From positions 1,798,001 through 1,862,000 of the forward strand of contig NZ_CP064653.1 of NCBI RefSeq assembly GCF_015711015.1: a DNA stretch of 64,000 nt, in the 5' to 3' direction. The notes beneath the pieces are model-generated. The model made no database searches and was not told where the DNA came from. It saw nothing but the letters and a program-made list of their open reading frames with translations. Each line of letters opens with the position of its first letter. Position 1 is the first letter of the stretch. The position numbers were made by a program, and so were the translations under genes. Shown in pieces: positions 6,031 through 9,787 of the stretch. The stretch comes from Methylomonas sp. LL1 (GTDB lineage Bacteria; Pseudomonadota; Gammaproteobacteria; Methylococcales; Methylomonadaceae).

Positions 6031-6066
6031 CTGTAGGTGCGAATTTATTCGCACTGTGCGGATAAA
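6031..6066. repeat. REP-like palindromes upstream of the cytochrome gene
   Basis: GTGCGAAT (6037-6044) and ATTCGCAC (6047-6054) form an 8-bp stem, followed by a second small palindrome GCGGATAAATCCG. The sequence resembles the GGGCGAATAAATTCGCCC core of the MITE-like copy at 25798, but without that family's ends. Confidence 0.45.
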
Positions 6067-6127
6067 TCCGTACCCAAAACCCGCCGCCCTCCCAAATTCA
6101 ACGGTCGGTATCAACGGAGAATCAGAT

Positions 6128-6697: not shown

Positions 6698-6766
6698 GGA
6701 TATCGCCAAAAACAACTTCCCTGAATAAGGATTTGGTTGAAAAAAATTTCCCTGATTTCCTTGTAG
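6697..6766. repeat. MITE-like repeat copy 2, left half (two stacked left ends)
   Basis: AAGGATATCGCCAAAAACAACTTCCCTGA is followed at once by a second left end, TAAGGATTTGGTTGAAAAAAATTTCCCTGA, and then by TTCCTTGTAG, where the IS110 element begins. The matching right half lies at 8092-8179. The doubled left end suggests a nested or tandem copy. Confidence 0.65.
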
Positions 6767-6803
6767 ATACTCTGTTCCAAGTCAACAAAATTCCATCACT
6801 TTT

Positions 6804-7841
6804 TCACTCAGCGATGATGGGTGTCGGAATGACATAAAACCGTGTGTTATCGAACGGCTGGTCGTGCTTTAGCATGCCATGGATCGCATGCAGTAATTTA
6901 CGCATCACTGCGCAGACGGCCTGTAAAGGTTTCTTGCCGTTGTCGACCAAGTGCTGGAAATAAGCGCTGACATGGGGATCATGCTGTTTGGCGCTCAAGG
7001 CCGGCATATACAATGCCGAGCGAATATGCCGGTTACCCGCCTTGGACAGCCGCATTTTCTTATGTACGCTTTTGCCGGATTCAAAGGCTTTGGGATCGAG
7101 CCCGGCAAACTTGACCCATTCGCGATGCGACAGGTTGGGTGGCAATAACAGCAGTTCGCCCATCAAAGCAATGGCGCTGGTTTGGGCAATGCCTTTGATG
7201 CCGGTCAGCAACTCAAAAACACGCTTGAGTTCCGGGTGCTGGTTGATCAAGGTCATCGCTTCGGCGGCCAAGGTATCGATGCGTTTTTCCAATTGACTGA
7301 TCGCCAGCTTGGCATCGCGCAGCAACGCCTTTGGAGTTTCCTGAGTCGCACTCAGTGCATGCAGATGGTTTTTCGCGGCAGCTTTCTGACCGGTCAGCGC
7401 ATCAATGCGGCGGGCAAACCCGCGCAAAGCCAGGGTCTGATTCGATGGCCGGGTCCAGGCGACAAAGTCCATGCGCTCGACGTATTCGGCCAGGGTATTG
7501 GCATCAACGGCATCGGTTTTGCTGTTTCTCATCAACACCTTGGCGAAGTTATGCGAGGCCTTGGGATTGACGACCATCACGGGAATACCGGCGTCATGCA
7601 ACGCAATTGCCAGGTCGAAATGGTAAATGCCGGTGGCTTCCAGGCAGACTTTGATGCCCGGCAGCTTGATCAGCTTGTTGACCAAGCGGGCACGGTCAGA
7701 GCGGGTATTGGCATATTTTTGTGGATCGAACGACTTGCCGTTCTTGCGGATCACCAGCACCAATTCATCGGCTCCGACATCCACGCCGGCAAACAGGCGG
7801 TGGATAGATTCAGCGATGGCATTGATTGGGAGGTTCGTCAT
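6804..7841 (-). CDS. IS110-family transposase (DEDD recombinase)
   Basis: A 345-residue bridge-RNA-guided recombinase. The N-terminal RuvC-like domain shows the DEDD residues in FAGVDVGADE, CLEATGIYHFD and SKTDAVDANTLAEY. The C-terminal Transposase_20 domain starts at LLTGIKGIAQTSAIALMGEL and includes FAGLDPKAFESGKSVHKK, whose Ser residues include the expected catalytic nucleophile. The ORF is full length for the family with no frameshift, so the element may be active. It lies antisense to the flanking metabolic genes, inside a repeat, and disrupts no gene. Confidence 0.95.
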   Translation of the reverse strand: MTNLPINAIAESIHRLFAGVDVGADELVLVIRKNGKSFDPQKYANTRSDRARLVNKLIKLPGIKVCLEATGIYHFDLAIALHDAGIPVMVVNPKASHNFAKVLMRNSKTDAVDANTLAEYVERMDFVAWTRPSNQTLALRGFARRIDALTGQKAAAKNHLHALSATQETPKALLRDAKLAISQLEKRIDTLAAEAMTLINQHPELKRVFELLTGIKGIAQTSAIALMGELLLLPPNLSHREWVKFAGLDPKAFESGKSVHKKMRLSKAGNRHIRSALYMPALSAKQHDPHVSAYFQHLVDNGKKPLQAVCAVMRKLLHAIHGMLKHDQPFDNTRFYVIPTPIIAE

Positions 7842-7904
7842 AATCGTTTTTTAATTCAGTTAAAGGTTAAGTACACTATTCACCGGTTCCCGACCCTGCG
7901 CATG

Positions 7905-8030
7905 CACCTACCTTCCTTGTGTATGCAGGCTCTAAGCCTCGGATACTCCACGGTATGGGTGAATAGGGCGGGGGCCAATCTACAGCACAGGCTCTGGTAT
8001 TTACCAGTCCTCAGGGGCGAACGGCCTCCC
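7905..8030 (-). ncRNA. Candidate IS110 bridge RNA (target-binding and donor-binding loops)
   Basis: Read on the minus strand, two bulged hairpins follow each other. Target loop: the base stem is 8023-8030 with 7970-7976 and the apical stem is 7994-7999 with 8002-8007. The 5' internal strand holds TCGCCCCT (8013-8020), identical to the left target plus CT core, and the 3' internal strand holds TGTAG (7980-7984), complementary to CTACA of the right target. Donor loop: the base stem is 7952-7961 with 7905-7912 and the apical stem is 7927-7931 with 7935-7939. GAGTATC (7942-7948) equals the left donor end, and ACAAG (7916-7920) is complementary to CTTGT of the right donor end. This matches the published layout of IS621 bridge RNA. 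Exact RNA ends are unknown. Confidence 0.8.
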
Positions 8031-8091
8031 AATGAACGATGACAGCTTAATCGGTTCTTCTAGGCTATCGGTTGTTAAAATTCATCATACA

Positions 8092-8179
8092 AGGGGCGAT
8101 TTTAATCGCCCAAGGCGAATGAATTCGCCTCTACAGGACATTCGAATATCGGGAACTTATTTTTGACGGAATCCTAAGT
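8092..8179. repeat. MITE-like repeat copy 2, right half
   Basis: The repeat resumes after the IS110 element with GGGGCGATTTTAATCGCCC, then AAGGCGAATGAATTCGCCTC, and ends ATCGGGAACTTATTTTTGACGGAATCCTAA. The terminal stretch is the inverse of the left end at 6727-6757, with a shared pattern TAGGATT-GT-AAAAATAA-TTCCC. Its organisation follows copy 1 at 1222-1358 closely. Confidence 0.7.
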
Positions 8180-8214: not shown

Positions 8215-8260
8215 GGGTCGAATTTACTTGTGCCCTTGAGGACACAAGTAAATTCGACCC
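8215..8260. repeat. Long perfect hairpin upstream of gnd
   Basis: GGGTCGAATTTACTTGTG (8215-8232) is the exact inverse complement of CACAAGTAAATTCGACCC (8243-8260), an 18-bp stem around a 10-base loop. It ends 81 bases before gnd. No T tract follows. It could be a mobile palindrome or an mRNA leader structure. Confidence 0.6.
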
Positions 8261-8341
8261 TACACTGTTTCGACACAGTAAGAGCATGTCATCCTCAACG
8301 TGTTACTATCCGAATACAATCAACGATTACGGTAGGCGAAC

Positions 8342-9787
8342 ATGAAAGCAAATATCGGTTTAATCGGCCTGGCGGTCATGGGCCAAAATCTGGTTCTGAA
8401 CATGAACGATCACGGTTTCAAGGTGGCGGTCTATAACCGCACCACCAGCAAGGTCGATGATTTTCTGGATGGGCCGGCCAAGGACACACAAGTTGTCGGC
8501 GCGCATTCCTTGCAAGAACTGGTCAACAGTCTGGAATCGCCGCGTAAAGTCATGCTGATGGTGAAAGCCGGCAGCGTGGTGGATCAATACATCGAGGACT
8601 TGCTGCCTTTATTATCGGCGGGCGACATCATCATAGACGGCGGCAATTCGCTGTTTACCGATACGGATCGCCGCACCAAATATCTGCAAGAAAAAGGCCT
8701 GCTGTATATCGGCAGCGGGGTTTCCGGCGGCGAGGAAGGCGCCCGCCACGGCCCGTCCATCATGCCCGGCGGCAATCAAGTGGCCTGGCCGGCGGTCAAG
8801 CCGATCTTCCAGGCCATCAGCGCCCATGTCGATGGAGCCCCCTGCTGCGAATGGGTCGGCGATAACGGCGCCGGCCACTACGTCAAAATGGTGCATAACG
8901 GCATCGAATACGGCGACATGCAATTGATTTGCGAGGCTTACCAACTGCTGTCTGAAGGCCTGGGACTCAGTACCGACGAGATGCAGGCCATTTTCGCCGA
9001 ATGGAATGGAGGAGAACTCAGCTCCTATCTGATTGAAATCACCGCCAATATCCTGGCTTACAAGGACGACGACGGCCAGCCATTGCTTAACAATATACTG
9101 GATACCGCCGGCCAGAAAGGCACCGGCAAATGGACCGGCATCAACGCGCTGGATTTGGGCATTCCATTGACGCTGATCGGCGAATCGGTGTTTGCCCGCT
9201 GCCTGTCCGCCCAAAAAGACGAGCGTGTCAAGGCAGCGAAGGCATTGCCGAAACAAACCACGACCTTTAAGGGCGACAAGCAAGCCATGATCCTGGCCAT
9301 CCGCCAGGCCTTGTATGCCTCCAAAATCATTTCCTATGCGCAGGGTTTTCGTTTGATGCGGGAAGCGGCCAAGGAATACCGGCTGAGCTTGAATTACGGC
9401 GATATCGCCTTGATGTGGCGCGGCGGCTGCATCATCCGCAGCCAGTTTTTGAACGACATCAAACAGGCTTACCAACAAAACCCGGACCTGGAAAATTTGT
9501 TGTTAGCCAATTTCTTCGTCAATGCGATGAAGCAAGCCGAAGCCGGCTGGCGCCAAGCGGTAATTCTGGGCATACAACTCGGCATCCCGACGCCGGCCTT
9601 CTCGTCCGCCCTGGCCTATTTCGACGGCTACCGGACCGAAAGACTACCGGCCAATCTGCTGCAAGCGCAACGGGATTATTTCGGCGCCCATTCCTACGAA
9701 CGCACCGACAAACCCAGGGGAGAATTTTTCCATACCGACTGGACCGGCCACGGCGGTAAAACCGCATCCAGCACTTATACGGTTTAA
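8342..9787 (+). CDS. gnd: 6-phosphogluconate dehydrogenase, decarboxylating
   Basis: A 481-residue enzyme of the long, E. coli-like type. It oxidises and decarboxylates 6-phosphogluconate to ribulose-5-phosphate, which RuMP methylotrophs use to accept formaldehyde. The N-terminal dinucleotide fold shows [16 protein letters not shown], followed by YNRTTSK; the Arg-Thr after the second strand fits NADP+ preference. The signature [19 protein letters not shown] and the catalytic-lysine segment [16 protein letters not shown] are intact. The C-terminal tail ends in [14 protein letters not shown], as usual. It is separated from the zwf-edd-eda cluster by the IS110 insertion and repeats, so it probably has its own promoter. 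Confidence 0.97.

What the first reader, a model, noticed from the sequence alone, without database searches (positions are those of the whole stretch)
7905..8030. Complete bridge RNA decoded in an IS110-family element
On the element strand two adjacent bulged hairpins carry four guide segments. TCGCCCCT equals the left target plus core (8 nt), TGTAG complements CTACA of the right target, GAGTATC equals the left donor end (7 nt), and ACAAG complements CTTGT of the right donor end. All four include the CT/AG core. Both hairpins also have base and apical stems, so fourfold agreement by chance is very unlikely. This reproduces the IS621 mechanism in a new element with a different target.
Basis: partly seen in the sequence, partly recalled or inferred. 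Interest (0 to 1): 0.85.

Follow-up and report, generated by a model that had tools for sequence, protein, structure and literature searches.

The report
RNA-guided jumping gene in Methylomonas
A small mobile element in a methane-eating bacterium carries a predicted RNA whose loops match both its own ends and the repeated DNA where it inserts, so it is a clean new example of the recently discovered bridge-RNA elements rather than a new kind of system.

Summary
The window carries an IS110-group element (minus strand, 8093..6767 plus core CT). Its 345-aa recombinase aligns with ISCro4 (2e-43) and IS621 (1e-42), with IS621's five catalytic residues kept. The four claimed guides lie in order in the long left end; 0 of 4000 shuffles reach the score. 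Nine copies exist in the genome: 8 of 9 left flanks match 8 nt of the left target guide, and 8 of 9 right flanks read CTAC. Over 19 left-guide classes and 59 sites, guides change with targets (101.1 of 133 positions match; shuffled mean 66.0; 0 of 20,000). The scaffold stays nearly constant, with compensatory stem changes. Further IS621-like features: a sigma70-like promoter formed when the ends join, a 9-on-7 right donor guide, handshake bases. The target is a dispersed REP-like palindrome, as for IS621. RNA production and recombination are inferred. The right target guide covaries only weakly and donor guides do not vary in this clade. Verdict: a well-supported new member of a known kind, of modest novelty.

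The parts
6765..8093 (-). IS110-group element, 1327 bp (8093..6767) plus core CT at 6766..6765
   Evidence: Boundaries from nine copies sharing the same ends, in nine places of the genome
6804..7841 (-). DEDD/Tnp recombinase (transposase), 345 aa; D21, E68, D110, D113, S255 align with IS621 D11, E60, D102, D105, S241
   Evidence: Pfam PF01548 and PF02371; PDB matches ISCro4 2e-43 and IS621 1e-42 with alignments; IS621 residue numbers from PMC11208158 passages
7886..8031 (-). Predicted bridge RNA, target-binding plus donor-binding loops (covariance model span); full RNA likely from about 8078, 3' end not fixed
   Evidence: 25-sequence alignment, stems with compensatory changes; 24 matches to the model in 8 of 37 genus genomes
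8013..8021 (-). Left target guide TTCGCCCCT (9 nt; 8 or 9 match in 8 of the 9 own copies)
7980..7984 (-). Right target guide TGTAG, followed by handshake bases AT (7979..7978)
   Evidence: handshake position by comparison with PMC11208158
7942..7949 (-). Left donor guide GGAGTATC (7 of 8 match the donor: GAGTATC)
7916..7924 (-). Right donor guide ATACACAAG: 9 nt that can pair with the 7 donor bases CTTGTAT, two bases flipped out; then handshake bases GA (7915..7914)
   Evidence: sequence; a 9-on-7 discontiguous pattern is described for IS621
8087..8093 (-). Right donor CTTGTAT (element left end)
6765..6772 (-). Left donor GAGTAT plus core CT (element right end)
6780..6785 (-). -35 half TTGACT of the junction promoter
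   Evidence: TTGACT-17-TATGAT appears when the two ends are joined
8084..8089 (-). -10 half TATGAT of the junction promoter
8094..8100 (-). Left target ATCGCCC (end of a palindromic repeat)
6761..6766 (-). Core CT plus right target ACAA

Best explanation
This is an active or recently active IS110-group insertion sequence of a Methylomonas genome. It encodes a DEDD/Tnp recombinase and, upstream of it, a bridge RNA. Inferred steps, by analogy with IS621: the element excises as a circle, joining its ends and rebuilding a sigma70-like promoter (TTGACT-17-TATGAT) that transcribes the RNA. The RNA's first loop pairs with the target (TTCGCCCCT with the left side, TGTAG with the right side). Its second loop pairs with the circle junction (GGAGTATC and ATACACAAG). 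The recombinase then exchanges strands at the shared CT. The target is one foot of a dispersed REP-like palindrome (...TTCGCCC|CTACA). Shown here: the anatomy, nine copies at matching sites, left-guide covariation with targets across relatives, compensatory changes in the RNA stems, and the aligned catalytic residues. Inferred: RNA production, circle formation and recombination.
For: Nine copies, seven of them without mismatch over 1322 bp, the others with 1 and 6. 8 of 9 left flanks match guide positions 2-9 exactly; 8 of 9 right flanks are CTAC, 6 of 9 CTACA. Chance test 0 of 4000 shuffles. LTG-LT permutation: 101.06 of 133 versus 65.98 +/- 4.65, 0 of 20,000; positions 2, 4, 5 and 6 each p below 0.001, position 3 p 0.045. 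RTG extension t12 p 0.03, t13 p 0.04. Stems: 96.3% of 629 cells paired, 27 cells changed on both sides versus 7.6 in shuffles, and more than in any slid version; basal TBL stem G-C to A-U in 7 of 25 and C-G to U-A in 2 of 25. Recombinase matches IS621 and ISCro4, with D, E, D, D, S aligned to IS621. Own genome holds 44 TCGCCCCTAC sites versus 7 for the pattern read backwards, and uninterrupted copies of the repeat across the insertion point. The guide layout read from an E. coli IS621 copy is the same: ATCGGGCCT, GTAG+AT, ACAGTATC, ATTTGCAAG.
Against: The single sequence folds no better than shuffles (z 0.13). Two of the five whole-structure measures are not raised: pairs with a double change 7 versus 5.0 (44 of 500 shuffles reach it) and further pair types 14 versus 15.9 (481 of 500). 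LTG position 1 does not track the target (p 0.28); t14 and t15 of the right target do not covary (p 0.23 and 0.91). Own guide is sole best for only 22 of 59 sites, joint best for 24 more, not best for 13. Poor matches: L055, L074, L083, L115, L140, and two of four remnants held out of the test match at only 4 of 7. L068 has CTGGTAT at its left end while its RDG is unchanged. Donor guides hardly vary, so the donor half is unproven by covariation. One of the nine own copies (L013) has an extra C before the core. No expression data.
Confidence: 0.95

Rival explanations
1. The recombinase itself recognises the target; the matching segments in the left end are relics of the target sequence or chance.
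For: Readable targets of the clade share the left-target C before the core CT and nearly all share CTAC, which a protein could read.
Against: Recombinases 92-93% identical use different left targets (TCGCCC in the window genome, CCCACC in G001 and G026) and their left guides differ accordingly while most of the RNA does not. Permutation 0 of 20,000. Four ordered matches 0 of 4000.
Confidence: 0.02
2. The conserved left-end structure is a cis-acting DNA element or an mRNA leader that regulates the recombinase, not a guide RNA.
For: It lies directly upstream of the gene; RNA stems alone do not prove a trans-acting guide.
Against: The variable parts are largely the loops that equal the flanks, besides an apical loop. 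The junction promoter would start a transcript just before the RNA. The IS621 relative was shown in print to bind its RNA (PMC11208160, passages).
Confidence: 0.02
3. It is a bridge-RNA element, but it no longer moves; the copies spread by duplication of the host repeat.
For: Several copies lie in similar repeats, and bridge RNAs without an intact recombinase beside them were found in 4 of 37 genus genomes.
Against: Seven copies show no mismatch over 1322 bp yet sit beside different repeat members, and one (L016) has an unrelated right flank. The recombinase frame is open in all nine.
Confidence: 0.06

Closest known systems
IS621 (IS110 group, E. coli) and its bridge RNA
   Same: Bridge RNA in the left end, order LTG-RTG-LDG-RDG, 9-nt LTG, GUAG plus AU handshake bases, discontiguous 9-on-7 RDG, CT core, junction sigma70-like promoter, nearly the same donor (GTATCTTGTAT), catalytic residues, and REP palindromes as targets
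   Different: Recombinase 35.5% identical to a plasmid-borne IS621 copy; different target (TCGCCC versus ATCAGGC); RNA scaffold too different for a blastn match in the E. coli collection
ISCro4 (IS110 group)
   Same: Best solved-structure match of the recombinase (2e-43)
   Different: Its RNA and target were not compared here
seekRNA of IS1111 and IS110 elements (PMC11187229)
   Same: Same phenomenon under another name; in IS110 types the long non-coding region lies mainly upstream of tnp and the order of the target matches is reversed relative to IS1111 (passages)
   Different: IS1111 elements have subterminal inverted repeats and a downstream non-coding region; this element has neither
Relatives in Methylomonas sp. 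LW13 and Methylotuvimicrobium/Methylomicrobium (L048-L051, L062, L063, L065, L066)
   Same: Same element family, same donor ends and nearly the same RNA scaffold
   Different: Different left target guides with matching different targets

Membership tests
IS110 family (IS110 group, IS621-like) | DEDD_Tnp_IS110 plus Transposase_20 domains | tested here: met
   PF01548 82.9 bits (cut-off 29), PF02371 66.7 bits (cut-off 21.3)
IS110 family (IS110 group, IS621-like) | Catalytic D-E-D-D and S residues | tested here: met
   D21, E68, D110, D113, S255 aligned to IS621 (IS621 residue numbers, chain offset of 2 counted by me)
IS110 family (IS110 group, IS621-like) | Long left non-coding end upstream of tnp, short right end, no long subterminal inverted repeats | tested here: met
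   Left end 252 bp, right end 37 bp from stop codon to core; no inverted repeat of 7 or more between the outer 60 bases, none of 11-13 with up to 2 mismatches between the outer 40
IS110 family (IS110 group, IS621-like) | Insertion at a CT core shared by donor and target without further target duplication | tested here: met
   All nine copies have CT at both junctions; an uninterrupted repeat copy at G000:C2:133413-133473 spans the point with TCGCCCCTAC, one CT
Bridge RNA (IS621 type) | Two internal loops whose sides match left and right target and left and right donor | tested here: met
   Four ordered matches, 0 of 4000 shuffles
Bridge RNA (IS621 type) | Target guides covary with targets across relatives | tested here: met
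   LTG 0 of 20,000 permutations; RTG only weak, t12 p 0.03 and t13 p 0.04, t14 and t15 not
Bridge RNA (IS621 type) | Donor guides covary with donor ends across relatives | tested here: inconclusive
   Donor ends and donor guides nearly invariant in this clade; L068 departs by one base with its guide unchanged
Bridge RNA (IS621 type) | Conserved RNA secondary structure | tested here: met
   96.3% of cells paired and 27 doubly changed cells versus 7.6, both 0 of 500 shuffles; but doubly changed pairs 44 of 500 and further pair types 481 of 500; single-sequence fold z 0.13 gives no support
Bridge RNA (IS621 type) | Promoter reconstituted at the circle junction | tested here: met
   TTGACT-17-TATGAT in the window element; 14 of 23 distinct junctions matched the expression used. 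A consensus match only; activity not tested
Bridge RNA (IS621 type) | RNA is transcribed and binds the recombinase | not testable with these tools
   No expression or binding data
IS1111 group | Subterminal inverted repeats (7-17 bp) and a bridge RNA in the right end | tested here: not met
   RNA lies upstream of tnp, right end only 37 bp; no such inverted repeat

The most novel reading that the evidence does not exclude
In this methanotroph-centred clade the target guides have been repeatedly re-tuned, on an almost frozen scaffold and with a frozen donor side, to different families of REP-like palindromes in their hosts. The clade would then be a natural series of reprogrammed bridge RNAs that home on a host's own repeat repertoire, at the 3' foot of the hairpin before CTAC.
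Probability: 0.5. Interest if true: 0.42.

Novelty: new member of a known kind. Interest (0 to 1): 0.3.

Why it matters
It adds an independent recombinase with a guide-target pair read entirely from sequence, and a family of relatives with nearly identical scaffolds but different guides and targets: ready-made natural reprogramming experiments. It also extends the IS621 habit of inserting into REP palindromes to methane-oxidising bacteria. It does not change the understanding of the mechanism.

Tried and rejected
Rfam: no family reached the gathering score in the window. A distant blastn search of the left end in E. coli genomes found nothing at E 1e-5, so IS621 was compared through a plasmid-borne copy found by protein search. 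Single-sequence folding was uninformative. RNAalifold on alignment A1 gave a target-loop stem that I do not accept, because MAFFT placed the gap of the shorter right target guides wrongly; the basal stem was therefore counted from the ungapped arms in a script. The first regular expressions for the RNA missed sequences and were widened. L057 was not used in alignment A1 or the counts (masked bases upstream), nor were partial loci in which no left-end motif and RNA pattern were found.

Recombinase-less copies were followed as possible bridge-RNA-only mobile elements: 4 of the 24 model matches in 37 genomes (L166, L168, L171, L173). Within the stretches fetched (about 1.5 kb beyond the RNA; for L171 only 138 bases, to the contig end) they diverge from the element at different points and no right end was seen. 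One GAGTATCT in L168 lies about 1.3 kb downstream, beyond the point of divergence. They look like truncated remnants.

Literature: searches were seen as listings apart from the three papers named; one search for IS110 with Methylomonas gave 2 papers, seen only as a listing. PMC11208160: outline, passages and section 12 read. PMC11208158 and PMC11187229: passages only. Words beginning Methylo or methanotroph do not occur in the main text of PMC11208160, nor Methyl in that of PMC11187229. Supplements and ISfinder were not available, so this element may already be catalogued under an IS name.

Full report
1. What is there. The window lies at G000:C2:1798001-1862000 of a 4.92-Mb genome. A same-genus genome, G026, has a contig of the same length (5,233,523) as Methylomonas sp. 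LW13, so the host is placed in Methylomonas by inference. On the minus strand there is an open frame of 345 aa, 7841..6804, with the two IS110 domains PF01548 and PF02371. It lies between a cytochrome b561 gene and a 6-phosphogluconate dehydrogenase gene (Pfam).

2. Boundaries. The element occurs nine times in the genome: seven copies without mismatch over 1322 bases, one with 1 and one with 6. All nine begin CTTGTATGATG and end GGAACAGAGTAT followed by CT. The element is therefore 8093..6767 with a CT core at both junctions. Of the nine left flanks, eight read TCGCCC directly before the core and one (L013) has an extra C. Of the nine right flanks, eight read CTAC and one CTAT; six read CTACA.

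3. Chance. I scored the longest ordered, core-anchored matches of left target, right target, left donor and right donor at loop-like spacing. The left end scores 25 (8+5+7+5). Of 4000 dinucleotide shuffles 79 gave any arrangement, the best 22, none 25. Of 1064 pieces of the window on both strands only this one scored above 19. The scoring was written after seeing the claim, so the comparative test below weighs more.

4. Relatives were collected by protein search: 45 loci from genome contigs and whole-genome searches of 37 genus, 237 family and 201 order genomes (the sets overlap). The core was located by donor motifs at the element ends, independently of the target guides. After removing rows with repeated guides and flanks, 61 rows remained, 59 of them with a readable left target, in 19 left-guide classes (L079 and L081 lack a readable left end). 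Over positions 1-7, 101.06 of 133 class-weighted positions match, against 65.98 +/- 4.65 when guides are dealt out anew among classes; 0 of 20,000 shuffles reach it. Positions 2, 4, 5 and 6 carry most of the signal (p below 0.001 each, 3000 shuffles), position 3 is marginal (0.045), position 1 shows none (p 0.28), and positions 7-9 of the guides do not vary among the 19 classes. For the right guide (21 classes, 54 sites), the CT core and A are constant; the extension shows weak covariation at t12 (p 0.03) and t13 (p 0.04) and none at t14 or t15. The own left guide was best or joint best for 46 of 59 sites, 24 of these being ties; for 13 it was not best. Misses include L055, L074, L083, L115 and L140. 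Four further remnants found only by the RNA model and not in the test gave 6, 6, 4 and 4 of 7.

5. Scaffold. Twenty-five distinct RNAs align with 76% mean column identity. The window and L020 (G026, the genome matching LW13; recombinase 93% identical) differ in 3 of 9 left-guide columns, 2 of 4 right-guide extension columns, 4 of 12 apical-loop columns and 1 of 146 others. For four stems written by hand, 96.3% of 629 cells pair; 27 cells are changed on both sides against 7.6 +/- 2.3 in shuffles, and sliding the partner by 1 to 3 columns drops pairing to 20-50%. The number of pairs with a double change (7 versus 5.0, 44 of 500) and of further pair types (14 versus 15.9, 481 of 500) are not raised. 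The basal stem of the target loop, counted separately, shows G-C to A-U in 7 of 25 and C-G to U-A in 2 of 25, one broken pair (L081), and a bulge of one or two A in all 25. Folding the window sequence alone gives z 0.13.

6. Match to IS621 in detail. From passages of PMC11208160 and PMC11208158 and section 12 of the former: IS621 has a 9-nt left target guide, a 4-nt right target guide followed by handshake bases A81/U82, an 8-nt left donor guide ending in C, a right donor guide of nine bases pairing discontiguously with seven donor bases, and a sigma70-like promoter rebuilt by excision. The window element has TTCGCCCCT; TGTAG then AT; GGAGTATC (7 of 8 matching); ATACACAAG against CTTGTAT with two bases to flip out; and TTGACT-17-TATGAT across the joined ends. 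Among 23 distinct joined ends, 14 matched my promoter expression; by eye, 8 of the other 9 have TTGTGT or TTGCGT with TATATT at the same spacing, and L083 lacks the -35. An IS621 copy from an E. coli plasmid shows the same layout with ATCGGGCCT, GTAG+AT, ACAGTATC and ATTTGCAAG, and donor ends ACAGTATCT and CTTGTATT. The recombinase matches ISCro4 (2e-43) and IS621 (1e-42) in the PDB set, with D21, E68, D110, D113 and S255 opposite IS621 D11, E60, D102, D105 and S241 (IS621 numbering; the PDB chain carries an offset of 2 by my count).

7. The target. TCGCCCCTAC occurs 44 times in the genome, 7 times when the pattern is read backwards, often as oppositely oriented pairs 35 bases apart. A query made of the joined flanks finds uninterrupted copies across the insertion point, the best 92% over 61 bases. 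Over the clade, 37 of 58 sites lie at the 3' foot of an inverted repeat (arm of 6 or more, p 0.05 or less against a shuffled left flank; one of the 59 sites dropped for a short flank): for example GGCGAATTCATTCGCCC, GTGGGC..GCCCACC, GTTGGG..CCCAAC, GTCGGG..CCCGAC. It holds for 8 of 8 distinct sites of the window's class and 9 of 10 of the TCCCACCCT class, but only 2 of 12 of the CTTGAGCCT class. Insertion of IS621 into REP palindromes is already known (PMC11208160). The homing of this clade on several REP-like families with guides to suit is the most interesting extension, but selection for it was not tested against simple hitch-hiking on common repeats.

8. Mechanism and limits. The best-supported reading is an IS110-group element using a bridge RNA as IS621 does. 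Shown: anatomy, copies, covariation of the left target guide, compensatory stem changes. Weak: right target guide extension. Not shown: covariation of donor guides (nearly invariant here; L068 departs by one base), RNA production, circles, recombination. Filed as a new member of a known kind. The published survey predicted bridge RNAs in 85.7% of IS110s (PMC11208160 section 12), so finding one is expected. Supplements and ISfinder could not be checked.

Noticed in passing
window 6033-6074 (minus strand): A second REP-like repeat containing TTCGCACCTACA; it equals the target of a sister element in another genus (L145, left guide TTCGCACCT), so a repeat type is shared between genera and hit by a differently guided relative.
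   Followed up: partly
window 8215-8261: A hairpin (GGGTCGAATTTACTTGTG...CACAAGTAAATTCGACCC) upstream of the 6-phosphogluconate dehydrogenase gene at 8342; another repeat type or a terminator.
   Followed up: no
L166, L168, L171, L173: Bridge RNAs without an intact recombinase beside them in four Methylomonas genomes; RNA and left end kept. Remnants most likely, but they could act in trans if transcribed.
   Followed up: partly
L058 (5' end of the element): The left end carries five close-set copies of CTTGTATGATTA, as if the right donor had been duplicated repeatedly by insertion or slippage; L077 has two copies of its own version.
   Followed up: no
G000:C2:580159-580953: Another IS110-family recombinase (34% identical) in the same genome; its RNA and target were not examined.
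   Followed up: no
L059, L060, L067, L068: Relatives (68-80% protein identity) on contigs of MAGs labelled Sulfuriferula, Sulfurimicrobium and Gallionella point to transfer beyond methanotrophs, or to binning errors.
   Followed up: no
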